Assembly (NCBI RefSeq): GCF_000340215.1
Contig: NW_006921540.1
Coordinates: 614,377 to 678,376 of the forward strand
Length of the DNA stretch: 64,000 bases
Direction of reading: 5' to 3'
DNA from: Pseudocercospora fijiensis CIRAD86
Taxonomy: Eukaryota > Ascomycota > Dothideomycetes > Mycosphaerellales > Mycosphaerellaceae
Part shown: in pieces, positions 24,739 to 62,915 of the stretch
How positions within the stretch are numbered: the first letter of the stretch is position 1
Layout: every line of letters starts with the position of its first letter
Notes under the pieces: generated by a model
Databases searched by the model: none
Seen by the model: the letters and a program-made list of their open reading frames with translations, nothing else
What the model was told of the DNA's origin: nothing
Made by a program: the position numbers and the translations under genes

Positions 24739-25429
24739 CTACCTCTATTTAGGCTCGTAGGTATAATAAAGAATTAAGTTACGTAGATGTATAGTAGATA
24801 GGGATTATATTGCGACCGAGTGCACGTAATAGATTAGTAATTAGGGCTAGCTTCCGAACTTACCGACAACTAATTACGAGCACTCTACCTAATTCTTCGC
24901 CTACGAGCCTAATATAAACCCGTACGAAACCAGCCTGCTAAATACTAATATAACACTACAACGTATACAAGATATTCTGAATAGCGGAGGTTGTAGCCCT
25001 GCTAATTGCGCTTCATTCTACCTATCAAAAAAGTCTATACGACGTTAGCGCGTTGAGTTTTCGCTATTCTGCTAAGCCGACTCGACTATAGCTGTCCGGA
25101 TTGCTAGGCGGCTGGCTGCACTGCCAGAAACACCTCAATATATAATACACCGCATCGCCTAGCTAATACTTAGAGGTCCTTCTCCTAACGCCGGTGATTA
25201 TTGTTTAGGTAGGCGAAAATTCCGTCCGACGCCTACCAACCGCTCTATAGCCTTCGAGGGCAATCGACAACCTTCCTACAGCCGACTCGATACTTCGAGG
25301 TCCTTCGTAGACCATTTCTGAACACCTTTTGTGTACAGTATAAGTCTATCCGAGGTGTGGTTGTTGAGTTGCTGCTATATAGCAGACGCGACTCTAAAGC
25401 CAAGGTCAAAACACCCAAAAGTCGCTGCT

Positions 25430-25757
25430 AGCACCACCACTACAGCTGCCACTACAGCTGCCACTACCGCTGGCAGACCGCTGCTACCACCGCTGCCACC
25501 ACCGCTGGCAGACCGCTGCCACCACCGCTGCCACCACCGCTGGCAGACCGCTGGCAGACCGCTGCCACCACCGCTGCCACCACCGCTGCCACCACCGCTG
25601 CCACCACAGCTGCCACCACAGCTGGCAGACCGCTGCCACCACAGCTGGCAGACCGCTGCCACCACCGCTGCCACCACCGCTGCCACCACAGCTGCCACCA
25701 CCGCTGCCACCACAGCTGGCAGACCGCTGGCACCACCGCTGCCACCACCGCTGCTAG
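25430..25757. repeat. Triplet/nonamer array (gct gcc acc)n inside the element leader
   Basis: Imperfect copies of gctgccaccacc and gctggcagaccg. The same array, RIP-converted to gctactaccacc-like forms, is present at 59,625-59,845 in the full-length copy, so it belongs to the element. Open frames read through it on both strands are repeat artefacts. Confidence 0.85.
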
Positions 25758-25774
25758 GCCTCGAGTCCTTTAAG

Positions 25775-26116
25775 ATGTCTAACGAACCTTCTAGTGAGAT
25801 GACGGTATATGATTACGACGATGAAGGCAATCCAATCCTTCCGCCTTAGCAGCAAGACGATAGCGGCGATCCAATAGACCAGGATTCAGATGATGCGCCA
25901 CTTCCAGGCCAGCTAGGTTATTAGCACGCTCTAGTCGGTCCACCTCTTCCTAGACAGACAGCAGCATTGCCGATGCACTCTACAAGCGGCTTCCTAAGCG
26001 ATGTACTAGAGACTATCGTACGACCAGCGGATATGCCTAGGGTTGGCGACTTCGAAGATGAGCAGTCGGAGTCGGAGACTGCAGATGAAGAAGTCGATGC
26101 GACAGGCGGTAATTGA
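25775..26116 (+). pseudogene. Remnant DUF6589-type ORF (N- and C-termini fused by deletion)
   Basis: ATG 25775 to TGA 26114-26116 is 114 codons in one frame, with two in-frame TAG codons. It begins MSNEPSSEMTVYDYDD, continues through an acidic region (FEDEQSESETAD) and joins directly to the extreme C-terminus EEVDATGGN found in the full ORF. The 887-codon deletion keeps the frame exactly. The two TAG codons are shared with the full-length copy at the same positions. Confidence 0.7.
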
Positions 26117-26178
26117 GATGTGGATAAGGGCAGCGGTTGTAGCGACTAAGGAATGAATGGATATCGGCATCGTCAGCA

Positions 26179-27733
26179 TCACCGCCATGCGCGCTTGATC
26201 GCAAAGCGACATCGAACTGCACATAGCCGCGCTGCCCTGAGCTTGCACGCACCTGCAAACATGGTCAAGTGATCAATATCGTGGAGTTCACCCAGTCCAC
26301 TGCCATTCAACGCCGCCCACAAGTCAGCCACCAAGATCTGCGCACGTTTGAGGAGCCGCACTCTGCGCCCCTCGAATCGTGTCTCGTCACGGAAGCAAGG
26401 GAAGTGGTGAGCCAGCAAATTGACTAGCTTGCCAGCCGACCCGTCGCTTTTCTGGATGAGCCGCATAACAGCATAGTCCGGCTGCTGCTCTGCTGGTCGG
26501 GTCTCGGTCGGTGCTTCCGATGCAGGCGCGGCACTGTGCACGGCGTCGCTCTGTGGTGCTACATTTTCGTTCGATGCAGCAACTTGTGTGCTGATGAAGT
26601 CAGCTTGATGTGATGTGTCCATGCCGTTCTGAAGTTCTGCTTCGTTCGACCTTGTACCGCTGCCTTCCCCAGAAGCAGCGTCAATCTCCGGCAGGTCTTC
26701 TAATCTGGCCGCCTCGGCAATGTGCAGATGGTCGACTTCGCCGGAGAGCGCTTCAACATGTCCATTCGTTACGACATCATCAGTCTGATCTGGACGTGTT
26801 GAGTCGACTCCCATCGGAGCGGAACCGTGCTCCATCTCGTTGTTCAGCCTGTCCTCTGCAGCATCTATCACACCGTTGCTCGGCGGCTGGGATTGCTCCT
26901 CTGCGCCGATGACAACTTCGTCTGCGTCTTCGTACTCGTCCTCGTCTCCAGGGAATGCCTATATCATTAGCAAAAAACCATCTCGCGTCAGTACAGAATC
27001 TCCATACCCGGCGCAATATGTCACTCGACTCTCGAAGCATTTCAATTCGGTCATCAAGCAAGGGAATTGGCTCTGCCGTGGCAGAGCGAAAGACACGTCT
27101 CAGCAGTTCGTCTGTGCATTGCCGACTCCGCCAGAAGCGCGGCGTAGTAATAGGAATGCCCTCGTCCAGTGCTCGTCGCAAGCAGGCCACTAAGCTGTTG
27201 TAGCCAGTCCATCTTCTACCTCTATACTCCACTTGGTATCGTTCTTCGCTCGGAAGTTCAGACCAAAAGCTATGCATCTCGATCAGCATACCATAGCAGC
27301 ATTGGAAATCTACACCTCTCACGAATAATTCTGCAAGTCCATCGTAAAGACAAAGTTGACGATGTCGAGTTCCGTAAACCCTTCACTCATCTTGGGATGG
27401 AGTTCATGCTGACTCCAGGTCTCCGTCGAGTATCCGCGTTCTTGCATCATCTGATAAATGCTCTCTGCCGCCGCTTTCGTGCCGTACATGTCAATCGACA
27501 CATCGATGGCATTATTGTAGATGAACTCAGCGTTACGGAGAACGCCTGTACGATTCTCGTCAGTCTTCAAGCATGAACGGGCGATACCCCAGTACAGCAG
27601 TCAATCGTTGATGGTACGGTACTAATGGCCACCTACCTGTGTCGCTTGAGATTTCATCCCTGGGTCGTGAAGAGATGCCCAGTCTTTGGCGGAGGAGTTC
27701 CAGCAACTCAGGGTCTGCCTCGTCGTCGCTCAT
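26179..27733 (-). CDS. QNG1: Queuosine 5'-phosphate N-glycosylase/hydrolase (QNG1, DUF2419), C-terminus lost
   Basis: QNG1 releases queuine from queuosine 5'-phosphate for salvage into tRNA. Exons, minus strand: 27,733-27,637; 27,545-27,323; 27,269-27,008; 26,958-26,179 (453 codons plus stop). Introns are 91, 53 and 49 bases with GT..AG. Family blocks seen: VLRNAEFIYNNAIDVSID, FTELDIVNFVFTMDLQNYSFW, YRGRRWTGYNSLVACLRRALDEGIPIT, PLLDDRI, FPCFRDET.FEGRRV and LLKRAQILVADLW, ending DIDHLTMFA at about residue 428. An acidic insert of about 160 residues (195-355) is absent from the human protein as I recall it. After MFA the family continues for about 100 residues; here an intron donor (gtgcgtg, 26,252 downward) is followed 88 bases later by the transposon. 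The 25-residue tail shown is read-through of that intron, so the enzyme is probably non-functional. Confidence 0.85.
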
Positions 27734-28210
27734 ATTATTGCCGGACTGCGCCAAGTGACCAGACCGGAGCGCGACTGCCTTGTGTTGATGGTGATGATGA
27801 CAGAGTCGTGCAAGCCATTGGATGTTTGCTACAGGTGTGATTCCTGGTGGACGCTGCACCGGTTGCTTTCGAAGCCGTTATTTCTCCATCCCTGCATCCC
27901 GTGGCTTCATGCACCGGGCCATACCGTCGCTGCGCAACGTCAAACCTTCCTGGCGCGTCTCGCAACTCTCTCTCTGACAGCATCTACCTCCTTATCACCA
28001 AGACCAGCTCGACCCACACTCATTCCCCACAGCAGCCACGCTCTCGCCCGATGCTTGCTCCCAAAACTTCACATGCGATTACGAAAGTGAGCTGCAGGAG
28101 TGAAGCTCGGAATTGCAGCCGCTGCTGAGCCGCAGAGCAGCGCATCCTTTTCGCAACAACCACGTCCGATTACAAGAGCACCATCGCGACTTCAATCGAA
28201 CACCGCCATC
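27734..28210. promoter_or_regulatory. Divergent promoter region QNG1/UBA2
   Basis: A 477-base spacer between the two divergent start codons (QNG1 ATG 27,733, UBA2 ATG 28,211). Pyrimidine-rich tracts lie near 27,960-28,030. No specific factor site is claimed. Confidence 0.5.
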
Positions 28211-30202
28211 ATGCAGCGCCGCGAGCGCGGCATCGCGAAATCACTCGGTATAGAACTTACCAAGAAAGTCAAGGAGAGCCGAGTACTACTTGTTGGCGCC
28301 GGCGGCATTGGATGTGAGGTGTTGAAGAACTTGGTGTGCTGTGGATTCGGCACTGGATTGAGGATTACACAAGCGGCAGAAGGCGCGCAACAAGCAGCTC
28401 AGTCGGAGTCTGCCAGTGGAAAGAAGGCGGAGATTGTGGTCATTGACCTGGATACCATCGACCTGAGCAATCTGAATCGGCAGTTCCTGTTTCGAAAACA
28501 GCACATTAAGAAGCCGAAGGCATTTGTCGCGAAGGAAACTGCAAGCCAGTTCAACCCAAATGCGAACATTGACGCACACCACGCGTCCATCTTCGATTCA
28601 CAGTATGATGTCGATTTCTACGAAGGATTTGACATGGTTTTCAATGCGCTCGACAATCTGGCCGCGCGACGACATGTGAATCGCATGTGTCTCGCGGCTG
28701 ATGTGCCACTGATAGAAAGCGGCACGACTGGTTTCAACGGCCAGGTGCAGGCAATCAAGAAGGGTGTGACGGAATGCTATGACTGCAACGAGAAGCCCGT
28801 CCAGAAGTCATTCCCTATCTGCACCATCCGATCTACTCCATCACAGCCAATCCATTGCATTGTGTGGGCAAAGTCCTACCTGCTACCCGAGCTATTCGGC
28901 ACCAGCGAAGACGACTCTTCCGACGTGGCCGTGACAGACGGTGACAATGCTGAAGAAGTCGCGAAGTTGAAAGAGGAGGCTGAGGCCCTGAAGAAGATTC
29001 GAGGCATGATGGGCCAGGAGAACTTCGCGAAGGCCGTGTTCAACAAGGTCTATCACGACGACATCGAGCGATTGCGGTCAATGAAGGAAATGTGGCAGAG
29101 TCGCAAGGCACCCGAGTCTCTGCAATTTGAGGTTGTCTGCATCGATGCGAATCCCGAGAAGCATGGGGAAGAGCTTGCTACGCAAGATCAGTACGTGTGG
29201 ACTCTCTTGGACAATCTCAAGGTCTTCTGCCATAGCATCGCCAAGCTCAGCAAGCGTGTTGCGGATGGAGAAACGGCGATAGAGTTCGACAAGGACGACA
29301 AGGACACACTCGATTTTGTCGCATCAGCTGCAAATCTAAGAGCACACATTTTCGGCATCGATCTTCAGACAGAGTGGGACATCAAGCAGATGGCAGGAAA
29401 TATCATCCCTGCCATTGCTACCTCAAATGCGCTCACAGCTTCGCTATGCGTGTTTGAGGCATTTAAGATTCTGCGCACCCATACGTCAAGGCCTCATGCC
29501 CCCCAGCAGCCCGCAAATAATCAAATTCCGATTAATGTGCAAACGAATGGTACCACCGAGCCACTGCTCGGAGGCAGCAAGATGGTCTTCCTGACGTCTA
29601 AAAACACCGACCGAATGATCACCAGTCAAGCACTGGTAGCACCCCGCAAAGACTGCCCTGTGTGCTCGCCAACATACGCAAAAGTCATCATCAAGCAAGG
29701 TAGCAGTCCGACGCTGCAGAAGCTGATCGATCTGGTAAAAGCTTGCGGCGGTTTCGAGGACTTCTCCGTGACATTCGGCGAGAAGATCATCTACGATCCC
29801 GATCTCGACGATAACCTCAACAAGCCTCTTCGTCACGAGGATTTGGGCATCGATGGAAAGGACATCACCTTTTTAACCATAGTCGACGACAGCGACGAGC
29901 CGAAGGTTGACCTTGTGCTCAGCGTCAAGACTAAAGAGCTCGAAGGCGAAGATGACCTTGTGCTCCAACCCGATACGCTAGCTTTACCACCGAAGCCAGC
30001 GAAAGCCAACGTCCAAGAAATTTCGGTCGATAACGGCGATGATTCGGATGCTCTGCTTGTTGGTGACCCAAATTCTGCTGGTCTCAAGCGGAAGAGAGAA
30101 GCAGAAGCGGAAGATCAGGTTGAAAGCGCAGCAAAGAAAGCCAAGGGCGATCCGCAGGAGGCCTACATCGTGGAGGACGATGGCGCGATCCTCCTTGATT
30201 AA
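28211..30202 (+). CDS. UBA2: SUMO-activating enzyme subunit 2 (Uba2)
   Basis: Catalytic subunit of the heterodimeric SUMO E1 (with Aos1), nuclear; it adenylates SUMO and forms a thioester with it. Uninterrupted ORF of 663 residues. The ATG at 28,211 was chosen because MQRRERGIAKSLG aligns with the family start; an upstream GTG extension is not needed. Seen: nucleotide-binding GAGGIGCEVL (about 28-37), DLDTIDLSNLNRQFLF, zinc pairs CYDC (about 188-191) and CPVC (about 482-485), catalytic Cys in FPICTIRSTP (Cys204) with the following HCIVWAK, a ubiquitin-like domain (about 500-600) and a basic nuclear-localisation-like KRKRE and KKAK near the end. A 26-residue low-complexity insert follows KNLVCCGFG; no GT donor is present there, so it is not a missed intron. 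Confidence 0.95.
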   Translation: MQRRERGIAKSLGIELTKKVKESRVLLVGAGGIGCEVLKNLVCCGFGTGLRITQAAEGAQQAAQSESASGKKAEIVVIDLDTIDLSNLNRQFLFRKQHIKKPKAFVAKETASQFNPNANIDAHHASIFDSQYDVDFYEGFDMVFNALDNLAARRHVNRMCLAADVPLIESGTTGFNGQVQAIKKGVTECYDCNEKPVQKSFPICTIRSTPSQPIHCIVWAKSYLLPELFGTSEDDSSDVAVTDGDNAEEVAKLKEEAEALKKIRGMMGQENFAKAVFNKVYHDDIERLRSMKEMWQSRKAPESLQFEVVCIDANPEKHGEELATQDQYVWTLLDNLKVFCHSIAKLSKRVADGETAIEFDKDDKDTLDFVASAANLRAHIFGIDLQTEWDIKQMAGNIIPAIATSNALTASLCVFEAFKILRTHTSRPHAPQQPANNQIPINVQTNGTTEPLLGGSKMVFLTSKNTDRMITSQALVAPRKDCPVCSPTYAKVIIKQGSSPTLQKLIDLVKACGGFEDFSVTFGEKIIYDPDLDDNLNKPLRHEDLGIDGKDITFLTIVDDSDEPKVDLVLSVKTKELEGEDDLVLQPDTLALPPKPAKANVQEISVDNGDDSDALLVGDPNSAGLKRKREAEAEDQVESAAKKAKGDPQEAYIVEDDGAILLD

Positions 30203-30732
30203 GTGCGATCACAGCGCTTCATGCATCGAGCAGACTTCAAACTTCGCTCCCTGGTTCGAAAGAGATCAGAAAGCGAGACACGACACGATACCCACTTTTG
30301 CGAACTTTTTTTTTCTCCCACACGGCGTACATGGGACAAGAGAGCGATGGATAAGTATGTAGTATGGCGCCTCGAACCTAGCACATGGCCGAGAGGAGAG
30401 AGTGTCTTTGAAGTGCTCAAGGCATTCCGCTTCGGAGGTTACTAACTCAGCGTCAACGACGGCCACATGGATCCCAGACCAGACCAACCAATGTGTGTGG
30501 GCTTGGAAATGTATCATACATCATGGAGTATGAGTCTTGCTTGCTGCGTTCTATAGTGGAATGAAAGTACCAGTAACAAACACCTTTGGGTGAATTTCTT
30601 TCTTTTTGCTTTTTTTTCTTTTTGCTCTTTTTTTCTTTCTTGGACAGTGATTTCATGATGCTGATTGGGAAATTGCACCGACGATATGTCTGCAGAATTT
30701 GGAATGCGCTTCATACCGAACTTTTACAACTG
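30203..30732. other. Convergent intergenic region with T-rich low-complexity tract
   Basis: Lies between convergent UBA2 and the GFA-family gene. 30,596-30,645 is a run of ttttctttt-type sequence, probably 3' UTR or terminator DNA. The open frames here are not protein-like. Confidence 0.5.
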
Positions 30733-31519
30733 CTATAGCTTCGAAAGTGGCTTGTTGCGCTTGACTATACCCATCATCTTCCAAAGCCGGCCCCAACCTT
30801 GACCAGAAGACGAATCATCCTTCACAGATTTGACTGGCTCCGGCGCCTTGTCATCCTCCACAGCCTCGTCGCCTTCTACAGCCTGGGTTTGCTCGTTGGT
30901 CAGCCTTTCGTTCGCATGAGCAAGGGCGCTACCACCTCAAGCTGTACGGGGGGGGGCATACTCACCTTGACTTGGCAGTGTACGTCGCGATGGCGTCCAT
31001 CAGCGGCGGGCTCAAGCAGTCATAGGTCTCCAAACCCAGGTCCTTGAATCTCGATCTGACCTGATGCATTCTGTTCGGATCAAAGCCTTGCTCGAGAATA
31101 CTGCTGACAAAAGCCGCGAACTGCGGTTCCTGCCAGCCCTGCTCCTTCGAAAGCTCGACATGGATGAAATCCAGGCCCTTGAACGGATGTGGCTTCTCGA
31201 TTCGTCCGTACAAATGCACGCCGCACTCCTTGCACGCGTTTCGCTGAATGGCGGCATTCGCGTCAATGATGTGCAGCTTGTTGGCGTTGGCGACCACGGA
31301 GAGATTGTCCACCGGAACTACGCCGACAATCGAGAAGAGTGCTCCGCCCGGCTTCCAGCACTTGGAGCACCCGCATGCGTGATTGTGTGCCACATTGCCT
31401 TTGATCTGCACTTTGACCTGGTTCGAGGGGCAGTGGCACTCGAGTGTGCCGCCGGTGAAATTCGGATCGCCTTTCTTGAGGCCTTGATTGAGGTCTGGGT
31501 GGATGTTCAGGAAAGACAT
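30733..31519 (-). CDS. GFA/CENP-V-family protein (S-(hydroxymethyl)glutathione synthase-like)
   Basis: The first exon (31,519 down to 30,966) holds the complete zinc-binding GFA fold: ECHC, CGCSKCW, then [13 protein letters not shown], and the C-terminal [15 protein letters not shown]. Family members bind two zincs through these Cys residues. The prototype is proposed to join formaldehyde to glutathione; many fungal members have unknown substrates. Unspliced, it stops after TAKSR (185 residues, TGA 30,962-30,964). Alternatively a 37-base GTGAGT..TAG intron (30,929-30,965, containing a nine-G run) leads to a stop-free acidic exon ending [17 protein letters not shown] at 30,733, giving 249 residues. 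I favour the spliced form moderately because the tail looks coding, but the intron is very short and lacks a clear branch point. Confidence 0.8.
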
Positions 31520-32459
31520 CGGGAAGCAGAAACTTGGGGATGAGTAGGCCAGCTTTGGTGGGATTCTCAGAGGAAAGGACCCCTTCAGGCTTTACATATG
31601 ACGGTCTTGCAAGTTGTCCGGAGACGGCATGGCGCAGCAATATTATGTGCTTTGGCGACCTTTGCTGTTGCCAGGATTCATGCCAACCAAGCGGGGTCAG
31701 CAGAAGTTGCATTGCGGTCCTCCGAAGAATTGGAGGAGGTATTCTACAAGGATACAGCGCTCCGCCAATGGATCACCAATGCAATGCCCCTCTCGCTCTT
31801 CTCTTTGCGTGATGAGCACCATGGTGCAATGCGCATCCGCAATGGAGGACATGCTCTTGTCGTCGAATACGGGCCATCCGATCCCGCTTCCCGGATTTGG
31901 CAAGGGAACCCGAGCTCTGCCCGCCTGCACAACCCGATCAACGGCTTCACAATGCCGCCACGGTATCCAATACTAAAATCCTAATCGCAGTGAAGAAGGA
32001 AAGGCGTGCTCGAGATCAGATGATCTTGGCCGACGAATACCGGCTCTGCTTTCCGACGAGAAATCTCAGGTTCGGCTGCTGTTACCGATGGTGTCGTTGT
32101 CGAAGCAGCTCAAGGCGAAGCACCGCCAGAGAAAGTTTTGATATAGTCGCTTGCTATAAGATCCAACATCGCTCTTCACTGGCCGGAACGGCGTGCTCAT
32201 CGACTGCAGGAGAATATGAAGCTCTTTGCCCCAGCAACAGTTGCAGGACCGCACGGGCATGGATTCATAACCATGATTACCGAGCTCTGTGATGGCAAGT
32301 CATTGTGCAGACGTGATTGCAGGACAGAGGAAGGAGTGAGGTCGTATTAAACTTGTACTGGTCACCTTGATGGTCAACTAACCACGACACGGATGTTCCC
32401 GCGAACATCTGCCATTTGATTGCGATGATCGAACATCGGATGCTTGCAGCGACTAGAAT
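31520..32459. other. Decayed region upstream of GFA gene, no intact gene
   Basis: Normal base composition but only fragmentary frames. A 128-codon plus-strand frame (31,598-31,984) has no motif I recognise. It may contain the downstream part of the adenylating-enzyme relic that begins at 33,100 on the minus strand, but I cannot show it. Confidence 0.35.
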
Positions 32460-33100
32460 TTACCGTCTGCAGATGAATTTTTTCATTTTCATGTGGCACG
32501 GATTTGAGGGAGCCTTCTCGGAAAATAGAATATGCAGAGGGCTTCATCTCCCTCGGTGCAAGGAAGAGTTTCAGACGTACATTGATATGATTACAGGGCG
32601 CGTGGATCCAGTCAAAATTACTACTTTGGCGGTTTGGTCGATGGCGAGTGGTTTGCGAGTTTCTGGAAGTGGTCCGCCTCCGTAAGCTGCATACTGAAGG
32701 CTTGACAATGTGTCGAGAAGTTTTCGATCTGCCGCCATTTCCGCGAGAACTGAGGGTGACGCAATCAAGATATCGATATTGGAAGATATGATGATATCCG
32801 CTAACATCGATGCATTAGCAGGAACGGTTCCCGGCAGGCGGGAAGATAATCATGAAAAGATTTTGTATTGCTGCCATAGCGATGTTGAGGGCTGCTAGAT
32901 GGAACAGAGGTAATGCGAGGAGAACTCGTTTTCCTGCCCATTGACAGAAATGAATGGCCATGATATCAGTGGCGGTCATTTGACATCGGGACCAATCGCG
33001 ATGCAAACCAAACCTTGCCGTGTCTTGATGTCTACTCACAGGCATTCCCACTCGTTAAAGACTGATCTCGTATAGCAGCAAGCATCTCCACTGCTTGATC
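32460..33100 (-). pseudogene. Adenylate-forming (AMP-binding) domain relic, NRPS-like reductase type
   Basis: Read on the minus strand in shifting frames: a TSG..GMPV remnant of the A3 core near 33,050; GKRVLLALPLFHLAALNIAM near 32,930; PPAG followed by a one-base frameshift near 32,832; then ILIASPSVLAEMAADRKLLDTLSSLQYAAYGGGPLP near 32,690-32,780; and an (S)ETLPCTEGD-like A5 remnant near 32,540. The LPLFHxAALN and YVAYGGGPLP phrasing is typical of fungal adenylate-forming reductases (A-PCP-reductase). Frameshifts and stops make it non-functional. The rest of the enzyme is not recognisable. Confidence 0.7.
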
Positions 33101-34185
33101 AGGCTATGGACTGATGTTCTTGCAGCTCAAACCTTTGCCAGGTCTCGTTCTGGGCTATATTTGTGTCAGGTATGTCAAGCTGCCCGATACAATCTTACTC
33201 CTCAGCGATGAGAAGAGGATGCTGTTTAAGAAGCAAAAGGCCTTTATGGATCCTGAGATAAAAAGTTGGCTTGGAACATGAAGTGATGGGATTGATGGCT
33301 CAGACCACCTCGCTTAGGAGGGAGCCCCGAAGGGGAATGGCGTGCCAAGGTGGCCTGAGCGCTACCTCATGAAGTTCTCCAACTTCTCCTCCCTCTCTTT
33401 TCGAACATTGCACCCTCTTTCGAAAAAATCAGACCATCCTGGTACAGCCTGTGAGGCATTCGCTAGTTGGAAGCTCGTCGCACCGGAACGAATCATCAGC
33501 ATCTGTCGCATACATGTGCATCTTGGTCTGAAGGTGGGGAATCGTCATATTGCGGTACTACCGATGCAAGGGAACAGACTGATGCGCTGCGAGATTTACG
33601 CCGTATTTATTGAAGGTCTCATGCTTGGAGATATCATATCTTTGAGCTCTTGTTCGAGAGATCAGGCCGCGGAATCGACAGAATATGACTTCTCTGCTGA
33701 GGAACTCGTCTCTGTCCCAAACCCCCACGGTTTGGGTCAATCATTTGGAAGTTTCAGAAGGAACACTTTCGTGTATTCCTCAATAGCTTCAATCACTCCT
33801 CACCTGAATATGCAATGCGACCGTTTCAGAAAGCTAAGTACCTAATCAGCTGTCTATTGCTTGCTGACAACACGCTTGCGTGGATGACAACTTCTCTGCA
33901 GCTGGAAGAGGCGTACCAGCAGTTTCCACGTCATCACGAGCACTGTACCTGATCGGAAAAGCACAAACGTGGCTGCAGGTACGGTTGCAGCGGAAGTAAG
34001 TGGAACCAATCGACTTTGCAAGTTCTCGATTCTGGCCTGACGCGCACTCTTTGTCAGTCGTGACATCACTTAAATGCGCTATTTCGAAGCTTGGCCGTGA
34101 GCTTCAAATACCACCCTCACCTTGGCATTGGAAGTAACAAGACCAAAGACAAAAGGCAATTTGATTGAATAATAACACCGCGATC
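33101..34185. other. Intergenic, possible N-terminal remains of the adenylating relic
   Basis: No intact frame. A 167-codon plus-strand frame (33,342-33,845) lacks recognisable motifs and opposes the relic. Normal composition with no RIP signature. Confidence 0.35.
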
Positions 34186-35584: not shown

Positions 35585-35829
35585 ATGCTGCGTGGGACGG
35601 GCATCGAAAAGTTTTGGATAGATGAAAGGTAGCTGGAGACTGCGGAAAAGTAACGATGGGGCAATGAATGACATCTGAATTTGTAGCGGAATATGTGCAC
35701 GGCGTGTTTGCATCGTTTGCCGAGTTTAGGACTGGGTAAATGTATCGTAGTCGAATGGTTCACAAGACGCTGCGTGATTCAAGAGCGAGATTCTCGTGCG
35801 TTAAGGAATTGTGTCATCACATTTCGGAG

Positions 35830-53470: not shown

Positions 53471-53556
53471 TGCAGATGGGATGGATGGGAAGATTGCGAT
53501 ACGATGCTATAATGAGGCATTTCAACTATCGCAAAAATTCCCCCCTCCCTCCCTTC

Positions 53557-54684
53557 TCAAAAATTCTCATCCCCATCCATCATCCTCCGCCAACAAGATC
53601 GATGTCTCGACCTATCAAACCCAACGACATCCCATCTTTCCACAATCTCCGCACTCACAAACCTCCCGTTCCGCAGCGCATCACGAAAATCCTTCACATG
53701 TACAGCAGCAACTGCTTCCTCCGTCCTCTCATCCAACATATGTCGTCTCTGCCCCTCCACCTGTCCGTCCGCAAGCGGCAACAGTCCCTGCCGCAATCGA
53801 AGACCATCAATATCCCCCTCTCGCTCTCTCCGCTGTGCGGGATACAGAGTACTCTGTGGATCCATTTGATATTTGCGAGCCAATGGGTTCGCAGTTGGAG
53901 GCGTGAGGGGTTTGTTCAGGAGTTGGAGATCATTTCCCGTAGATGTGACGACCATATCCGGTCTGTCGTTCATGTAACTTGTCGATTCGGAAATTTGGCA
54001 GGAATTCGAGAGGGAAATACAGTGTTTTCGAAATTCGCAGGTCATGAGGTGGCAGGTCTCGATTTGACAGGTTGTGGCGAGGAGGTATTTTGCCGCGACG
54101 TTGGCGAGTCTGCAATGGCTGGCTTGCGCGTGCAGAATTTTCGTCTGCGTGATGTCGCAGCGTTTCAATGTTGATGCGCCTCCTTGTCGGTAGACTTCGT
54201 GGCCGCAATCGAAATGTCGTTCGGTCGCGTCGTGGATTTTTTCTCCCAAGGTAGATTGTATCTCGCAGGCGTGGATCTCGACGTCGGAGATTTTGCAGTC
54301 GGTTATGAGGCAGTTTTGGAGTTGGGTGGTGAGGTTTTCGCTTTTGATTGAGCAGCGTGTTAGGTGGCAGCTTGAGACGGCGACGTCGATTAAGGTGCAG
54401 CGGTCGAGTTTTGAGCCGGGCGTGATGATGCAGTTGCGGATCTCGCGTTTGAAAAGGGGTGCCGCTGAGAGACGTTGTCTTTTGAGAGCGCCACGAGGCT
54501 GTGTGCGCGTCAGGTCTGGAGTGAAGCCTTTGGGGTGCGGGCGTAGTTGTTGCTGCACTGGGCGTCGATTTGGCTTCAGACTGTCGTTTTGGCGAGCCCT
54601 TGGCGTTGATATAGACATTGAAGAGAGTCTCATGGTCGTCGAATCTGCGTCAAGAGCATGCTGTTCACGGTTGAAGGAAGCCAT
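53557..54684 (-). CDS. Cys/Thr-rich repeat protein, beta-helix-like, unknown
   Basis: Single-exon ORF of 375 residues from ATG 54,684 (MASFNREQHALDAD); a longer frame upstream is less likely. After a basic, disordered 80 residues it shows a run of short repeats of the form xxCxIxxCxL (RNCIITPGSKLDRCTLIDVAVSS.., CLITDCKI, HACEIQ, KRCDITQTKI, TCQIETCHLMTCEFRK) to about residue 240. Regular spacing of Cys and branched residues every 5-6 positions suggests a right-handed beta-helix, as in pentapeptide-repeat or adhesin-like folds. The rest is polar and Arg-rich. There is no signal peptide. It converges with TBCD at 86 bases. Function unknown. Confidence 0.7.
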   Translation of the reverse strand: MASFNREQHALDADSTTMRLSSMSISTPRARQNDSLKPNRRPVQQQLRPHPKGFTPDLTRTQPRGALKRQRLSAAPLFKREIRNCIITPGSKLDRCTLIDVAVSSCHLTRCSIKSENLTTQLQNCLITDCKISDVEIHACEIQSTLGEKIHDATERHFDCGHEVYRQGGASTLKRCDITQTKILHAQASHCRLANVAAKYLLATTCQIETCHLMTCEFRKHCISLSNSCQISESTSYMNDRPDMVVTSTGNDLQLLNKPLTPPTANPLARKYQMDPQSTLYPAQRREREGDIDGLRLRQGLLPLADGQVEGQRRHMLDERTEEAVAAVHVKDFRDALRNGRFVSAEIVERWDVVGFDRSRHRSCWRRMMDGDENF

Positions 54685-55632
54685 GTTGCGGTTTTTGATA
54701 GCACTGGGTTGCCAGAATGGATGCTGGAGAGTAGAGCGATGACATTGTGACACTGTATCTTGAGTGTAGTATATATACCAAAAATGGCGTGTTGCTTTGG
54801 GGTATCGTGAGGACATCGAAGAAGCTTTGAGGTATGAGGACATATAAGCTTTGCTGTAGAAACATGCTGACCGTTCAAGCCAGCCTGTATGGTCAGAAAT
54901 TTACAAGCCTTAGCTGCCTTGCCTTGCAGTTTCAGCATATCCGGTGGGGACATTCGGCGAGGGAAAGACGAATTCCCATCGTGAAAAAGCTCGACAAAGG
55001 TCGTGGGCCGTGTCGGGTGGAACGATTGATCTTGAGCAAGCCACAGCAGCCGATTCTTCTTGCAATGTGGAATCTGATGGTTGACGCCTTAAGCAGGGAG
55101 AATTTTCCGAGCCTGGAAAAGTGTTATCTTGGGGGTGTTCCGGCATTTTCTGATGGCTTGGAGGGACTTTTCTCGAAGCTCTTCCTTGCGGGCTCCGTAG
55201 CATCGATTCATCCTGATGAGACTTTCGGGCGCTGGGAAGGTCACAGCCATATGTAGTCTTCTAGTTAGAGTAGGCGTGATGGGCGGACAAAAGAAATGTC
55301 TTAAAAGAAATGTCTTCCAGTTGGACGTCGCTTGAAGACGTGAGGTTGGGTTGCTCGCGGATGGTCGTCGCGTGACAGGCTTGGCATCGTCGTGCCTGCA
55401 TCGGAGCCGTGAGCCGACACCTGAACCTCCACCACCACCATCTCCATCACTTCCGCCGCCCATTTCACCCACCCTACCAACACCACCACCTCCTACAGCC
55501 TTGTGCAAGCTCAGCGCAATGTCGTACATTGTCCCCGACGCCCACGCCCTCCTACCGATGTAGCCGCCTTTCTCGCGCCTGCACAGAAGACAACCGAATA
55601 GCACGCACCGCATAGACAAACGCAGCGTCGCC
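54685..55632. other. Intergenic upstream of the Asi3-like gene
   Basis: No gene supported. A 140-codon plus-strand frame (54,834-55,256) lacks recognisable motifs. 55,415-55,500 is a ccaccacc/ctcc-rich tract that probably belongs to the promoter or 5' leader of the downstream gene. A long minus-strand frame from 56,012 overlaps the real gene and is rejected. Confidence 0.45.
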
Positions 55633-58452
55633 ATGGAGCAGTTCAGCAATGTGTCGTATATTCCCTCTGCTATGGACCTGCTGCTTGTGGTGCCACGGCT
55701 AGCGCAGAGAGCGAGCTCATTCGCACTCTTCCATATGCCCGAAGCAGTGGACAACATCGCCAGCAAGGTCTGGAATGGAGGCAGCGTCTTGGCGGATCCT
55801 ACTTCCTCGCCAAACGCTACAATCTCGAATACCAGTGCCGCCTTCGTCCAAACAACAGCGGCGACATTAGATGCGAAACTCCGCGAGGTGTTTGCGCAAA
55901 GAGAAGAGACGAGCTCGTTCCTCGTGAGCGTGGCACATGGTTTCGGAAAGCTCAAGAACTTCGGCGGCATCTTCTCGTACCTGACCTCGAAGTGGGCCCT
56001 AACGACTTTCACCGTCGCTATAATACTGAATCGGACGCAATTCTATGCCTCGTCGCGAGAGCATCTGAGACTGCGCTTCCACGTGCGCTTAGCACTGTAT
56101 CTGATTCCCATTGCGGCGATTCTTGTTCAACTTCTCTCAATCCTGCAGGCTTTGAAGTGCCAGACGTCTCCGAACTTTGCCCAACTTCGCTATGGCGACC
56201 CGCTGAAGCACTTGACTATTGATTTCGCATCGGAGGGCGGCTTTCTCTACAAGCTGAGCTCGACACTACTATTCTGGCAGGACGATGCCGAATGCTGCGA
56301 TGCTAGACACATGTCGCTGATCGGCGTTGGAGAAGACAAGAGCGCTCTGCGAGGCTCCATGTCAATGCTCTACTGGTTCTTCCTGACCCTTTGCACTAGT
56401 CAGCTCTTCGAAACCCTGGCTTGCGCCCTGCAAGGCAAACAACCCATGCCGGAGACTGGCATGACCATCTTTGAGCATTCCTTGGCCTTTGCAGAATGCG
56501 AAGCTATGATTAGTAGTGCACTTGGTTTCGGATTTCTTGGACTTTCCAAAGTCGATTCGCCAAGCTCGTCAAGCGACGGGCCACTGATCAGCCGCGCAGA
56601 AATCCTCCAGCGCCTGAATGTGCCTCCGGAGGTACTCCTGGTCTGCTTGATTTCATGCTTCAGCCATCTTAGCAGTGCTCTGCTCGCTGTCGCAGGGATT
56701 CGTCACAACGTCCGCCTAGTCAATACCGCAGTCTGGGGCTGCTGCTACATGTCGGCGATAGTCTGGAGCTTTGCGAAGATTTTCATGTATCCCGTTGACC
56801 ACATAAGTGACCTAGGAGTGCTACGCTTTCCCACAGTCTGCATTGTGGGCTTTATACCACATCTCCTTCTGTTGATCGGCACTCTGGTCTGCGCTTTGAT
56901 TTATGGTCTGGCGATTCTTGCTACGGTCGTTTCCATGCCCAAAGATGCAGCAGCGGGGCGATCTCTACGACAGAGACTCGAATGGGCATACCAGAACCTT
57001 CAAGCGAACGTCCAATTCTCCCAGAACTCGTCTATTCATATCAAGATGACTGAAGACTTTTATACCACACTCCTCAAAGTCGGCTTCAACGTATTGACTG
57101 CTGCAAGCGAAGCTGTCTATCTGAACGAAGGAAGTCGCATCAATGTTGCAAACATGACGTGGTTAGAGCAGAAGCGTATTGATGAACTAGCAATGAGTAT
57201 GGATAAGCGGAAAGGGCCTTCCGTTCCGGTTGAACTCCTTGGCGACGGCATTGCGAGGGGTGTGAACTACGTCGATCATCAGAACTTTGCCATCGGTCAA
57301 TCGCCTTACGCTCGCGAGCGCAAATCACAAACTGCCAAGATTGCCGATCGAAGGCGGAACCAGACCGAGCTGGACAGTGGACTCGGGATCTCGCAACGAC
57401 GTAGCCGCATGCAACTCACGTTCGACTTCATCGCAGGCATCATCTGGCTTTCCATAAGTATTCAAGCACAATTCGCACTGGGTCTGCTTCGGAAAGTCGG
57501 CATCGTGCAGCGTCCATTGTGGCTGCTCAAGGCCGCCGGACTTACAGAAAAGCAGAGGGAGCCCTCGGCACATACTCGGAGTACCCGTCGCGTATTCACC
57601 AGTTTCTACTTTCCTGGCGACGATGGTAGTGTCGCGCTGCCAGACGACTTGAACATTGATGTCGAAGTTGAGACTAGACGCAAGATGACGAGACAGGGTG
57701 AGTATCAAGATGAGGAGGACCTAAGTGACACGCTTTATCAGTGGTGGCAGAGAGGAGGATGGTTTGGTGATGTAGACGCGAGCGGCGACTACGTCCAGGC
57801 TTCAGCAGACGATGATGATGACACAACGAGCATGATTTCAATGTCCACGAATGCAAGCACGGCAGACGATTGGGAAGAGGAAGAAAGCGGGCGCCGAACA
57901 CCAACACAACGGGATTTCCCTGGTGATTACTTCAGTAGAGAGAGAACGCCGGCGATGGACAACGGGCTGGACGTGGCCTCGCTATCTCGTCTCCTCAACC
58001 CCAAGACTGCCGCAGATCGAGAGGAGGCCAGATTGCTCTCATATAGCTTGCAGTCGACGAGTCCATTGACGCGCAGCCAGTATCGTCGCAACCAGGATCG
58101 GACGCGAGCTGAGCTTCTCGCCGGCCTACGCAATTCGAACACGTCTGTTGCCCATGCCGGTAGTGACGAAGATGAAGAGCGCGACCTTGAGCAATTCATC
58201 CTCGCGCAGCGCTCCAAAGCCAAGACAAAAGCCCAAAGAGCAGGAACATGGGAATCTGGAGCTGAGGGCATGGGAGAAGGTGGACCTCAATGCGTCGTGT
58301 GTCAGTCTACGCCACGCACCATTTTAGTGTGGCCTTGCGGCTGTCTGAGCATGTGTGATGACTGCAGAGTTGGGTTGGCGGCGCGAAATTACACGAAGTG
58401 CATATGTTGTCGAACGGACATTGCTGCGTATAGCAGGTTGTACGTGCCATAG
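55633..58452 (+). CDS. Asi3-like multi-pass membrane RING ubiquitin ligase
   Basis: Single-exon ORF of 939 residues from ATG 55,633. Hydrophobic segments occur at about 118-135, 150-172, 240-262, 330-358, 365-385, 395-430 and 595-615, so it is a multi-pass membrane protein. The C-terminus carries a Cys-rich RING: CVVC (887-890), PCGCLSMCDDC, then CICC and a short tail ending YVP. This architecture (membrane spans plus extreme C-terminal RING) matches the Asi1/Asi3 family, which in yeast forms the inner-nuclear-membrane Asi complex for protein quality control and degradation. Acidic and Ser-rich linkers fill 660-880. The Asi assignment comes from architecture and recall; the RING is certain. 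Confidence 0.82.
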   Translation: MEQFSNVSYIPSAMDLLLVVPRLAQRASSFALFHMPEAVDNIASKVWNGGSVLADPTSSPNATISNTSAAFVQTTAATLDAKLREVFAQREETSSFLVSVAHGFGKLKNFGGIFSYLTSKWALTTFTVAIILNRTQFYASSREHLRLRFHVRLALYLIPIAAILVQLLSILQALKCQTSPNFAQLRYGDPLKHLTIDFASEGGFLYKLSSTLLFWQDDAECCDARHMSLIGVGEDKSALRGSMSMLYWFFLTLCTSQLFETLACALQGKQPMPETGMTIFEHSLAFAECEAMISSALGFGFLGLSKVDSPSSSSDGPLISRAEILQRLNVPPEVLLVCLISCFSHLSSALLAVAGIRHNVRLVNTAVWGCCYMSAIVWSFAKIFMYPVDHISDLGVLRFPTVCIVGFIPHLLLLIGTLVCALIYGLAILATVVSMPKDAAAGRSLRQRLEWAYQNLQANVQFSQNSSIHIKMTEDFYTTLLKVGFNVLTAASEAVYLNEGSRINVANMTWLEQKRIDELAMSMDKRKGPSVPVELLGDGIARGVNYVDHQNFAIGQSPYARERKSQTAKIADRRRNQTELDSGLGISQRRSRMQLTFDFIAGIIWLSISIQAQFALGLLRKVGIVQRPLWLLKAAGLTEKQREPSAHTRSTRRVFTSFYFPGDDGSVALPDDLNIDVEVETRRKMTRQGEYQDEEDLSDTLYQWWQRGGWFGDVDASGDYVQASADDDDDTTSMISMSTNASTADDWEEEESGRRTPTQRDFPGDYFSRERTPAMDNGLDVASLSRLLNPKTAADREEARLLSYSLQSTSPLTRSQYRRNQDRTRAELLAGLRNSNTSVAHAGSDEDEERDLEQFILAQRSKAKTKAQRAGTWESGAEGMGEGGPQCVVCQSTPRTILVWPCGCLSMCDDCRVGLAARNYTKCICCRTDIAAYSRLYVP

Positions 58453-58776
58453 AGGCACACTTCTTTGAAAGCCATAGCGCAGGCGTTTGGGGATATTCTA
58501 TTCCAGTCACGAACAGCATGGTAGATACACAAGAATTTCAGAGTTGTTGCACCAGGCGGTCTCTCTGCCTTGGTGCTATCCCGTCACGTTCTATACCTAT
58601 CAAAGATTGGGATGCATGGTGAATTTCAGTCTACAGTATGCTGATGGTTTTGCCTGAATATTGGCAGCGTATGAGCATACTGAAAATCTATACCAGGCAC
58701 AAACAGCAATGCAGCTTGCAATTCTCTCGTGTCTCGATTCGTAGAATACTGTTAACTCTATTCGTACCCGAACAAA
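58453..58776. other. Short intergenic, Asi3-like gene to ADP-ribosylglycohydrolase relic
   Basis: A 324-base spacer of ordinary composition that would hold the 3' end of one gene and the promoter of the next. No further feature seen. Confidence 0.5.
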
Positions 58777-58937
58777 ATGCCCTCCATCCCCCCAAATTAC
58801 CTCCCCAAAGTCTAGAATACGCCGGTATCCTCGGCAAACTAATTGGTGTCTACCTAGGCCGACCCTTCGAGGAGATCATCAAAAATCTAGGCCCGATTCA
58901 TTACTAGATCCACGAGAACTTTGGATTGCCATGCGTG
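58777..58937 (+). pseudogene. ADP-ribosylglycohydrolase-like gene, N-terminal fragment cut by the element
   Basis: ATG 58,777 (context aacaaaATGc) reads MPSIPPNYLPKV then needs a one-base shift at about 58,813 to continue YAGILGKLIGVYLGRPFE, the hallmark start of the ADP-ribosylglycohydrolase/crystallin J1 family. It then reads IIKNLGPIHY, an in-frame TAG (58,906-58,908), and IHENFGLPCV. In the family the next residues should be the VTDDD metal-binding stretch. Instead, homology to the other element copy begins at 58,938. The gene therefore has a frameshift, a stop and a transposon breakpoint, and is dead. The remainder is not found right of the element. Confidence 0.75.
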
Positions 58938-61900
58938 CTACCTCCATTCAGGCTCGTGGGCATGAAGAATTGAGTTGCGTGAAGGTGATGAATGGGGATT
59001 ATATTGCGACCGAGTGCACGTGATAGATTAGTAATTAGGGCTAGCTTCCGAACTTACCGACAACTAATTACGAGCACTCCACCTAATTCTTCGCCTACGA
59101 GCCTGATATAAACCCGTACGAAACTAGCCTACTAAATACTAATATAATACTATAACGTATATAAGACATTCTAAATAGCGGAGGTTGTAGCCCTACTAAT
59201 TGCGCTTTATTCTACCTATTAAACAAGTCTATACGACGTTAGCGCGTTAAGTTTTCGCTATTCTGCTAAGCCGACTCGACTATAGCTATCCGGATTACTA
59301 GGCGGCTAGCTACACTACTAGAAACACCTTAATATATAACATACCGCATCGCCTAGCTAATACTTAGAGGTCCTTCTCCTAACGCCGGTAATTATTGTTT
59401 AGGTAGGCGAAAATTCCGTCCGACGCCTACTAACCGCTCTATAGCCTTCGAGGGCAATCGACAACCTTCCTATAGCCGACTCGATACTTCGAGGTCCTTC
59501 GTAGACTATTTCTAAACACCTTTTGTATATAGTATAAGTCTATCCGAGGTATAGTTGTTAAGTTGCTACTATATAGTAGACGCGACTCTAAAGCTAAGGT
59601 TAAAACACCTAAAAGTCGCTACTAGCACTACTACTATAGCTGCTACTATAGCTACTAGCACCGCTGCTACTATAGCTACTAGCACCGCTACTACTATAGC
59701 TGCTGCTACCGCTGCTACTACCGCTAGCAGACTGCTAGCACTACCGCTACTACTACCGCTAGCAGACCGCTACTACTACCGCTAGTAGACCGCTACTACT
59801 ACCGCTGCTACTATAGCTGCTACTACCGCTGCTACTACCGCTAGTAGGCCTCGAGTCCTTTAAGATGTCTAACGAACCTTCTAGTAAGATAACGGTATAT
59901 AATTGCGACGATAAAGGCAATCTAATCCTTCTACCTTAGTAGCAAGACGATAGCGGCGATCTAATAGACTAGGATTTAGATAATGCGCTACTTCTAGGCT
60001 AGCTAGGTTATTAGTACGCTCTAGTCGGTCTACCTCTTCCTAGACAGATAGTAGCATTACCGATACACTCTATAAGCGGCTTCCTAAGCGATATACTAGA
60101 GACTATTGTACGACTAGCGGATATAGCTAGGGTTAGCGACTTTGAAGATAAGTAGTCGGAGTCGGAGACTATAGATAAAGACCTTAGCGAAGAAGACGAA
60201 GATCCTAGCAGTAACGAGGAGTTAGATACTCGCGATAAAGATAAAGATAAAGATAAGGATAAAGATAAAGAGGCCCTAGAAATTGCACGCTATGCTAGCA
60301 AAGACGTTACGCTTAAGCGGCTCCTCGACAAGTATTATAAGGAGTTAAAGGATACTATAGTAAAGAATAAGGTTAGTATAACCTACTTTATTAAGTATTT
60401 AGTCGGCAAGCCGGGCGACAAAGCATCTACGTCTGCTAAAACTCGCAAGACTACTAAGCGCTCTAAGCAATACGAGAAGAACCTCTAGGCTGTTATCGAT
60501 GCCTTTCTAGAAGATCGCCTGTTTAGTGCTCGTATTGTTCGTAATAAGCTAAAGAACCTTATTAGCAAGGATTTGTTTAGTATACACAAACCGGAGTTCT
60601 ATAACTTCGAAATCGACCTTAGAGATATAGACGATACTATCTAATAGGTCGCTCCTATATAGCATTAGTTGCTCGGCTAGGATCTGCTACCTAACGTGCG
60701 TCGCGATTATTACTAGTACCGGACTAAGTTCGCGGACAAGCGTAATGTTATATAGAAGCGTACGACGATGCTAACCTCTTAAGTCCTATATTCTATGTCT
60801 TATATTAAGGCATTATTCTTTCTAAAGGCCCTTAGAATATTCCTCGTTAGTAATAGTGCGAGTCGTCGTACGATCGAGGTCTTAAACAACCTAAACATTA
60901 CTCTAGTATATCAGACTATCTAGATCCTAATAGACAAGAATGCTAATTATATAGAGACGCAAATTGCTAAGCTATATAACTACCCCGACAAGCAGTATAG
61001 TAGTACTATCGACAATTTCAATCGGATATAGAACCGTACCGACTAGGCTACTAGCGATACTAACTAGATAGTAGCTATAACTACCTCGTATATAGCCGTT
61101 AATAAGCGTATTCCGAAGGGTAGCCTAAAGAAGAAGATAATCTATTACGACAAGCCGCTAAACGCTAATAACATCTTTAAGAATATCTATAAAGATAAGG
61201 CAATACGACCGGATAGAGAGGAGGTTTCCGATATTAGTATTAAGACTACGCTCTTCTATATCGATAAGGCTATTGCGTATACGTTTCTAGAGGCCGTAAA
61301 GGCAATTTTCGAGAATAGCGGTAGTAATCTAAAGCGACTAGTATAGCTAGTAATCGATGAGTTGGACCCGGCCCGTATAGAGGTATATTCGTAGCCTATT
61401 TCCTTTAACGACGAGGCGACTATTAAGGGTATATATGCTATATAGGACGAGATCCTACTTAAGTTCTAGGACCTAGACCGCGACAAGGACTTTGCGAGCG
61501 GGCTAGAGGGACCTCTGTATATATAGAATAGCGACAATATAACCGTCGTACGTAGGCATAGCGTACGTAACGAGAGTGTCGAGAATAAGGACCCGTACGA
61601 CAAGCGCGATAGCCTCCTTATGTCGCTAGCCTAGTTCTATACTATAATAAACTGTGCATTTACTGTCCTGCGTACGCACTAGGATAAGAACAGCGATAGG
61701 AAGCCTCTTCTAAGCGCTTAGATAGCAAAGGGCGATGCTATATTCTAGTATAGCGAGAACAAGGTTAGTAGTACTAAGCTAAAATTCTTCGAGATCCTTC
61801 GGCTTCTTAAGACTATATTCCGGGCTCGTAGTGTCGGTGCGGCTATTAAGTAGTTGTCTAAGCAGGGCCGCGTTGTAATCTCTAGTAAGGAGAGCCGTAT

Positions 61901-62915
61901 AGATGCAGTTAAGGAGGCCCTATCTAGGCTAACTGCTTAGCAATACCTAGAGATAGTATAGGATATCTATAAGAAGCTCCTATCTATCGAGGTATAGCGT
62001 AGCTTGCCGCACCGCGTTAGTGAGCCGGCACCTAATGCCTAGTATACTACTATAGCTCGGATAATGTAGGAGATTGAGATGTTCCTTACCCTACGCCTCG
62101 GGGTCCGCAACGCAGATATTAGTTATCTCCGTCGATCCGTCGACTATCTAATCCCTAGTTTCCTCGGTACTAAGTAGGGAAATTATAGTCGGATAATAAT
62201 ATATAAGCGATAGCTACTTAGTCTAGGCTATAATAATGTCCTCTAAGAAGCTATTCTATCTTCTAGCATTATTACTAATAGGAAGAAAGGTTATATAATA
62301 GCGGCGGATAAGCAGCTCGAGATCTATAACTACGAGTACTTAGAAGACACTAATCGCATCGGTAACTCGACTTATAACCTACTAGCAACCTTTAAGAAGA
62401 TCGTACTTAACCGCGAGCCGGCTCGTATACTGCGTAATATAATAACCTCCTTTACTAGTATTAAGCTAAGCAGTTACTATACCTATAAGAATACGGCTAT
62501 TAACGTCTTTAGCCGCGTAGAGAAGCTATTCTCGGATAGCTTTATAGCTCCGTATAGCAATAACGGTAGGCATATGTCGGACGATATCTAGCAGCTTAGT
62601 AGCGATTAGATCCGCGAGAAGGTCGCTATATTTAACTAAAGTAACAAGGAGTACTTCGAAGGTCGTTCTACCGTTACGGATGCGGTCGTAGAGGACATAG
62701 AGGCTGCTAAGGCTAGTCGTGAGGCTACGACTAATCGTAGCAATATATAGGGTGCTACTATCGATAAGACCGACTCTAAGTAGGTCGATGCTATCTAACG
62801 TGCTAATAGATAGGCTTAGCTTATCGATGCGGAGGTTGAAGTAGTCGATACGATAGGCGGTAACTAAGATATAAATAAGGGCAGCGGTTATAGCGACTAA
62901 GGAATAAATAAATAT
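58938..62915 (+). mobile_element. DUF6589-type element, full-length copy (copy B)
   Basis: About 3,978 bases. It shares both ends with 24,739-26,164. Structure: 5' leader of about 0.9 kb with a triplet array (59,625-59,845), one ORF (59,865-62,867), and a 48-base tail. The first 60 or so bases retain CpA/TpG; the rest is strongly RIP-mutated. The only inverted-repeat candidate is TCCATTCA (58,943-58,950) against TGAATGGA at the 3' end of the left copy (26,154-26,161; RIP-mutated to taaataaa here). It interrupts an ADP-ribosylglycohydrolase-like gene. Confidence 0.8.
59865..62867 (+). pseudogene. DUF6589-type ORF, copy B, exactly 1,000 codons, RIP-inactivated
   Basis: ATG 59,865 to TAA 62,865-62,867 is 1,001 codons in a single frame with only RIP-type nonsense codons and no frameshift. 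It has an acidic N-terminus with a repeated Asp-Lys run (about residues 125-137), then LFSARIVRNKLKNLISKDLF, KRTTMLTSQVLYSMSYIKALFF, LRIFLVSNSASRRTIEVL, KKKIIYYDKPL, ITVVRRHSVRNES..DPYDKRDSLLMSLAQFYTIINCAF, a YSENKVSS..LKFFEI block, RIIIYKRQLLS and LEIYNYEYLED. The order of these blocks fits DUF6589 proteins as I recall them. There is no DDE/RNase H transposase, tyrosine recombinase or RT signature that I can see. Clear homolog of copy A. Confidence 0.7.

What the first reader, a model, noticed from the sequence alone, without database searches (positions are those of the whole stretch)
24739..62915. A DUF6589-only mobile element, defined by two copies that bracket the gene island
Seen: 24,739-26,164 and 58,938-62,915 share the same 5' and 3' ends in the same orientation. 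Each abuts a broken host gene exactly at an end (QNG1 at 26,165, the ADP-ribosylglycohydrolase-like gene at 58,937). The full copy contains one 1,000-codon ORF that resembles DUF6589 proteins and shows no recognisable transposase, recombinase or RT. Known: DUF6589 is a fungal domain without, to my knowledge, an established function. Inference: DUF6589 is itself the mobility protein (or a partner of one) of a roughly 4 kb transposon class.
Basis: partly seen in the sequence, partly recalled or inferred. Interest (0 to 1): 0.88.

Follow-up and report, generated by a model that had tools for sequence, protein, structure and literature searches.

The report
DUF6589–helicase transposon, 11 kb
An 11-kb jumping gene that sits in many decayed copies in this fungal genome carries a protein of an unexplained family (DUF6589) that is predicted to be its cut-and-paste enzyme, together with a helicase that likely helps it, so the suspected "4-kb DUF6589-only" element is really the left part of a larger transposon.

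Summary
The two window copies and the left boundary are real; the right boundary and the "4-kb, DUF6589-only" reading are not. In the window's own genome, 17 matches reach the base matching 62,915: 16 (the window's full copy included) continue with the same sequence and only the short window copy departs. The full copy runs out of the window to C9:684397 and is 11,084 bp long. It has perfect 16-bp terminal inverted repeats (CTACCTCCATTCAGGC) and an 8-bp target-site duplication; of 20 copies with both ends read, 19 have an 8-bp duplication and one a 9-bp one. The left half encodes DUF6589 (Pfam E 1e-21), the right half a RecQ-like SF2 helicase on the other strand; both are broken by stops of the RIP kind. 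Of 102 scored DUF6589 matches in the genome, 41 have such a helicase downstream, convergent, 4.1-6.7 kb away, against 0.9 by chance. Over 33 sequences DUF6589 mostly keeps an Asp, an Asp and a Glu (30, 25 and 30 of 33): a predicted DDE transposase. The AlphaFold model failed (pLDDT 33), so no fold is shown. Closest known: AcademH transposons; the helicase agrees, the published 9-10-bp duplication does not.

The parts
58930..58937 (.). left target-site duplication CATGCGTG of the full copy (repeated right after the right end, C9:684398-684405)
   Evidence: 8 of 8 identical
58938..64000 (+). the part inside the window of the full 11,084-bp transposon copy (C9:673314-684397); the right 6,021 bp, with the helicase gene on the minus strand and the right inverted repeat, lie beyond the window
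58938..58953 (+). left terminal inverted repeat CTACCTCCATTCAGGC, exact inverse of the right end GCCTGAATGGAGGTAG
59865..62867 (+). DUF6589 gene (predicted transposase), 1,000 codons, broken by 45 internal stops
   Evidence: PF20231 E 1.3e-21; stops; Asp/Asp/Glu set
62868..64000 (+). middle region of the element, with a tandem-repeat block at 63,116-63,441; continues beyond the window
   Evidence: the stretch from 63,924 on (L059) matches 37 other genome places at 82-95% over 1.1 kb or more
24739..26164 (+). short derivative copy: left end present, most of the DUF6589 gene deleted, right part missing; 26,164 is a rearrangement point near QNG1, not an element end
17131..18195 (+). second, diverged DUF6589 copy (55% identical protein to the first over the aligned part); its only close relative found is C10:1876320-1877383 (96%); its element ends were not found
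   Evidence: (E 4.9e-19)
21336..22394 (+). helicase fragment of the same class, likely from an inverted element that starts at a TIR-like site at 20,027
   Evidence: Helicase_C E 0.0088

Best explanation
The 58,938 copy is the left part of an 11.1-kb DNA transposon with 16-bp terminal inverted repeats and 8-bp target-site duplications that encodes two convergent genes, a DUF6589 protein predicted to be its DDE transposase and a RecQ-like helicase that likely assists it. Shown: ends, duplications, copy family, both genes at family level, their recurrent convergent pairing, and the mostly conserved Asp-Asp-Glu residues. Inferred: DUF6589 would bind the inverted repeats, cut both ends with an RNase H-type active site (Asp in 'YDNxN', Asp in 'GDQ.T', Glu in 'E(L/H).N'), and join them to target DNA with strand transfer 8 bp apart, which host repair turns into the 8-bp duplication; the helicase would open or remodel DNA during excision or repair. 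Short derivatives that keep both ends (931 and 1,070 bp) would be moved in trans. RIP has since broken the genes: all 102 DUF6589 and all 127 helicase matches scored contain stops.
For: Left boundary: 27 of 47 listed matches begin at base 1 or 2; among 21 left flanks two pairs are alike, no other. Right boundary: family copies stop at L060:2198-2201. 16-bp inverted repeats; 8-bp duplications in 19 of 20 copies, a 9-bp one in the other, 0 matches in 2,000 partner shuffles. Seven copies of 10.99-11.33 kb and two of 931 and 1,070 bp, all with both ends and duplications. DUF6589 E 1.3e-21; DEAD E 5.8e-5 and Helicase_C E 0.0022 on the minus strand, with motifs GEGKS, LGCSATM, IIVATTAFSVSLN, QRLSRTGR read by eye (stop signs inside the last passed over). 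Pairing: 41 of 102 DUF6589 matches have a helicase downstream and convergent within 10 kb, gaps 4.07-6.72 kb; 7 in another arrangement; 54 none; random positions mean 0.9, largest 6 in 500 trials (the lengths of three small contigs in that control were my guesses). Residues over 33 rows: Asp1 30 D, 2 N, 1 stop; Asp2 25 D, 8 N; Glu 30 E, 3 K; D-to-N and E-to-K are G-to-A changes such as RIP makes. An intact 637-aa relative has all three.
Against: No fold was shown: the AlphaFold model had mean pLDDT 32.7. No profile or PDB match to a known transposase. The triad was picked by eye from conservation; several Asn and Arg are as well or better conserved, the second Asp is kept in only 25 of 33, and many rows are near-identical copies, so they are not independent. 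54 of 102 DUF6589 matches had no helicase within 10 kb (both lists were cut by score). Both helicase Pfam matches are under their curated cut-offs. No activity, empty site or second strain was seen.
Confidence: 0.8

Rival explanations
1. DUF6589 is an accessory (for example DNA-binding) protein and the catalytic activity comes from elsewhere, in trans from another transposon, or from the helicase-side protein.
For: No fold or known transposase profile was found for DUF6589. The frames on the helicase side extend well beyond the helicase matches, and the rest matched no Pfam family.
Against: DUF6589 and helicase are the only domains found in the frames scanned; a helicase is not known to make staggered cuts of fixed length; the Asp-Asp-Glu conservation fits a DDE enzyme.
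Confidence: 0.13
2. One reading: a roughly 4-kb transposon class with DUF6589 as its only gene, ending at 62,915.
For: The two window copies share both ends by alignment.
Against: Of 17 genome matches that reach this base 16 continue, the window's full copy included; inverted repeat and duplication lie at the 11-kb ends.
Confidence: 0.02
3. A Helitron-like or telomere-associated helicase repeat into which DUF6589 was captured.
For: It carries a RecQ-like helicase, as a subtelomeric repeat family of the wheat pathogen M. graminicola does (PMC4522978, passages).
Against: Terminal inverted repeats with 8-bp duplications in 19 of 20 copies, which Helitrons lack (so stated in PMC4522978); copies lie inside many contigs.
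Confidence: 0.03

Closest known systems
AcademH lineage of the Academ superfamily (Kojima 2020, Mob DNA 11; paper not held, seen only as cited)
   Same: Named in other papers as DNA transposons of animals and fungi with a helicase (DEAD and Helicase_C domains are attributed to AcademH, KolobokH or Helitron); Academ is listed among the DDD/E superfamilies (passages of PMC10799480, PMC10045372, PMC9587614).
   Different: AcademH is said to make 9- or 10-bp duplications (PMC10045372); here 8 bp in 19 of 20 copies and 9 bp in 1. Homology of DUF6589 to the Academ transposase could not be tested.
KolobokH (fungal Kolobok elements with a RecQ helicase)
   Same: DDD/E transposase plus RecQ helicase in fungi; one red-algal Kolobok has the helicase on the complementary strand (PMC9587614, passages).
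   Different: Kolobok duplicates TTAA (recalled); the duplications here are 8 bp long and differ from copy to copy.
Zisupton / KDZ transposons
   Same: 8-bp duplications in Zisupton (PMC12730594, passages) and fungal hosts.
   Different: The Pfam scan of the window protein returned DUF6589 and no KDZ model; the passages seen do not mention a helicase for them.
Pfam PF20231 (DUF6589)
   Same: The window protein and 102 scored places in this genome match it over the cut-off.
   Different: Pfam calls it a family of unknown function; no paper in the held library contains 'DUF6589', and the one paper listed for 'PF20231' is about optics.

Membership tests
PF20231 (DUF6589) | profile match over the curated cut-off | tested here: met
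   77.2 bits against 27; second window copy 68.7 bits
TIR DNA transposon (class II) | terminal inverted repeats | tested here: met
   16 bp, perfect in the full copy; right-end 27-mer at 44 places with up to 3 mismatches, reversed control 0
TIR DNA transposon (class II) | target-site duplication of fixed length | tested here: met
   8 bp in 19 of 20 copies, 9 bp in the other; shuffled partners 0 in 2,000
TIR DNA transposon (class II) | transposase with RNase H-like fold and DDD/E residues | tested here: inconclusive
   Asp-Asp-Glu mostly conserved; fold not obtained, pLDDT 32.7
AcademH | encodes a DEAD/Helicase_C (SF2) helicase | tested here: met
   DEAD E 5.8e-5, Helicase_C E 0.0022, both under the curated cut-offs in a broken gene; motifs read by eye
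AcademH | 9- or 10-bp target-site duplications (as cited in PMC10045372) | tested here: not met
   8 bp in 19 of 20, 9 bp in 1
AcademH | transposase homologous to Academ transposases | not testable with these tools
   no Academ protein was available; Kojima 2020 is not held
KolobokH | TTAA duplication (recalled) | tested here: not met
Zisupton/KDZ | KDZ transposase domain | tested here: not met
   hmmscan against Pfam-A returned DUF6589 and two sub-threshold hits; that Pfam holds a KDZ model is recalled, and one frame of a broken gene was scanned
Helitron | no inverted repeats and no target-site duplication (PMC4522978) | tested here: not met

The most novel reading that the evidence does not exclude
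DUF6589 is the transposase of its own superfamily of eukaryotic DDE transposons, distinct from Academ: TIR elements with 8-bp duplications that pair a DUF6589 transposase with a convergent RecQ-like helicase, diversified into many subfamilies in one genome.
Probability: 0.3. Interest if true: 0.68.

Novelty: new variant of a known kind. Interest (0 to 1): 0.5.

Why it matters
It would give a function (DDE transposase) to a Pfam family that has none and turn scattered DUF6589 annotations into transposon annotations. It also pairs the enzyme with a helicase in a recurrent convergent layout, so the question why some DNA transposons carry their own helicase, and whether the helicase sets the length of the target-site duplication (suggested for AcademH versus AcademX in PMC10045372, passage), can be tested on one family with many subfamilies.

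Tried and rejected
Protein database: two searches with the read-through window protein found nothing; a 13-row alignment found a single relative, P0001. A viral-contig scan found no relative among 26 pattern matches. PDB by sequence: best E 0.14 and 0.69, not meaningful; none for the helicase at E 0.01. AlphaFold with 3 rows failed, pLDDT 32.7; no fold search was run on it. The first framings of the DUF6589 alignment read the 9 minus-strand loci on the wrong strand and were replaced. One L060 frame was doubled and one missed; one search covers the element part. I first took the 17,131 copy for a member of the second group; one search shows that it is not (64-65% to those copies). An 8-bp duplication for the short copy at QNG1 was sought and not found. 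Papers on rust fungi, Zymoseptoria TE bursts, Marasmius and Rhizophagus gave only mentions, citations or lists for Academ. A Pseudocercospora paper was seen in passages because I recall a 74-Mb genome for P. fijiensis; no call names the host of this window.

Rows dropped before the duplication count: right ends fetched without a known left end (L069, L074, L075, L086, L087) and left ends without a known right end (L011, L016, L017, L019, L027, L028, and the short window copy). One of the 20 (C11:440960) was paired with its distant right end after I had seen that its flank matched; the others were paired by position.
Full report
What was checked. The two window stretches are real direct copies. 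The short one (24,739-26,164) lacks an internal piece of the long one and is less RIP-mutated: C-to-T and G-to-A make up 127 of the 190 differences, read from the short to the long copy. The long copy lies in RIP-altered DNA (TA/AT 1.95), the gene island does not (0.54). The window lies in an unnamed 73.9-Mb genome of 30 contigs at C9:614377-678376.

The left end holds, the right end does not. The first 703 bp of the long copy give 47 listed matches in that genome (lower bound); 27 of them begin at base 1 or 2. I read 21 left flanks (L025 was mis-offset there): two pairs are alike over 40 bases (L016/L019, and L017/short window copy), no other pair reaches 60%. The last 516 bp before 62,915 give 41 listed matches; 17 reach the last base, and 16 of the 17, the long window copy included, go on with the same sequence (AGCTTTT...). 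Only the short window copy departs, so 62,915 was an alignment limit. Downstream sequence was followed in L059 and L060: copies end together at L060:2198-2201, that is C9:684397.

The element. The full copy is 11,084 bp. Its ends are CTACCTCCATTCAGGC and GCCTGAATGGAGGTAG. For 20 copies I had both ends (15 near the window's copy in sequence, 5 of a more distant group whose left repeat departs at 2-3 of 16 bases in four of them): 19 show an 8-bp duplication with at least 6 identical bases and otherwise only transitions, the other a 9-bp one (CGAGCGYAG); random pairing of flanks gave 0 in 2,000 trials. These 20 are not a random sample; what was dropped is told in Tried and rejected. Sizes of the 15 from their coordinates: seven of 10.99-11.33 kb; six others of 10.4 to 36.6 kb, the longer ones presumably with nested insertions (not looked into); two short derivatives of 931 and 1,070 bp. 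The right-end 27-mer is found at 44 places with up to 3 mismatches, its reversed control at none.

Genes. Left half, plus strand: DUF6589 (E 1.3e-21), 1,000 codons from ATG to TAA with 45 internal stops. Right half, minus strand: DEAD (E 5.8e-5) and Helicase_C (E 0.0022), both under Pfam's cut-offs and in different frames, NCBIfam recQ_fam E 0.0063, far under its cut-off, but with SF2 motifs readable by eye. The element's own helicase piece finds 127 matches in the genome (112 candidates scored of 222); DUF6589 finds 102 (102 scored of 177 candidates). Every one of these matches contains stops. Of the 102, 41 have a helicase downstream and convergent within 10 kb, with gaps of 4.07-6.72 kb; 7 have their nearest one in another arrangement, 54 have none; random positions give 0.9 on average, at most 6. 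Both lists were cut by score, so 41 is a lower bound; the 54 without a partner remain a weakness.

Is DUF6589 the transposase? Over 33 rows (30 genome loci, the two window copies, the intact relative P0001) three acidic positions stand out: Asp in YDNxN (30 D, 2 N, 1 stop), Asp in GDQ.T (25 D, 8 N) and Glu in E(L/H).N (30 E, 3 K); the 13 residue changes are D-to-N or E-to-K, which a G-to-A change of the RIP kind can make. The window's full copy has all three; the second window copy has Asn at the second. Their order resembles a DDE enzyme with a large insertion between the second Asp and the Glu, as in hAT (recalled). Other residues (Asn32 33, Asn460 32, Arg289 31, Arg368 32 of 33, numbered on P0001) are as conserved, and many rows are close copies, so conservation alone does not prove catalysis. 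AlphaFold2 with three rows gave pLDDT 32.7 and is not used.

Host genes. The ADP-ribosylglycohydrolase profile (positions 74-284) resumes 0.26 kb after the right end of the full copy, and an 8-bp duplication flanks the element, which fits a clean insertion into that gene; the short piece left of it gave no Pfam hit. QNG1 is different: its N-terminal part lies at C9:640627-641650, its C-terminal piece at C9:606562-606702, so about 34 kb of mostly repeats split it. The left junction runs into what looks by eye like the end of another, less mutated DUF6589 gene; no 8-bp duplication matches. That break looks like a rearrangement of nested elements, not one insertion.

Other copies in the window. 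A second DUF6589 copy (17,131-18,195) is 66% identical to the first at DNA level and 64-65% to the more distant group; its one close relative (96%) lies on C10 next to L017. The short window copy and L017 also share their left flank, so a composite of nested elements has probably been duplicated as a unit.

Comparison. Helicase domains of the DEAD and Helicase_C kind are attributed to AcademH, KolobokH or Helitron (PMC10799480, passages); AcademH is said to make 9- or 10-bp duplications (PMC10045372, passages); Academ is listed among the DDD/E superfamilies (PMC9587614, passages). The helicase fits, the duplication length does not, and transposase homology could not be tested, so I say 'works like AcademH' and do not file it there. 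KolobokH (RecQ helicase) fails on the duplication (TTAA, recalled). Zisupton has 8-bp duplications (PMC12730594, passages), but no KDZ domain was found. No paper in the held library contains 'DUF6589'; the one paper listed for 'PF20231' is about optics (12 of 13 papers listed). Subscription papers and Repbase are not covered.

Noticed in passing
C9:606562-641650 (window 1-27,274 and 7.8 kb to its left): QNG1 (queuosine salvage) is split by about 34 kb of mostly repeats; both junctions lie near the same point (end of the DUF6589 gene) of two different element copies, without an 8-bp duplication.
   Followed up: partly
L089:300-1700 (C9:606700-608100): A DUF6589-element fragment that looks much less RIP-mutated than the other copies, next to a stretch of N.
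   Followed up: no
window 17,131-26,164 and C10:1868328-1877383: A diverged DUF6589 copy (96% alike), a helicase piece and a short derivative copy (left flank 95% alike) occur in the same order in both places: a nested composite probably duplicated as a unit. L016 and L019 share another left flank.
   Followed up: partly
window 63,116-63,441: Tandem repeats with alternating 45/35-base spacing in the middle region of the element.
   Followed up: no
window 12,674-13,369: Ty1/copia-type reverse transcriptase (RVT_2, E 1.7e-30).
   Followed up: no
window 10,201-10,374: Stretch in a GC-rich kilobase scored as collagen triple helix by Pfam (E 1.9e-15) inside an AT-rich region; likely a minisatellite.
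   Followed up: no
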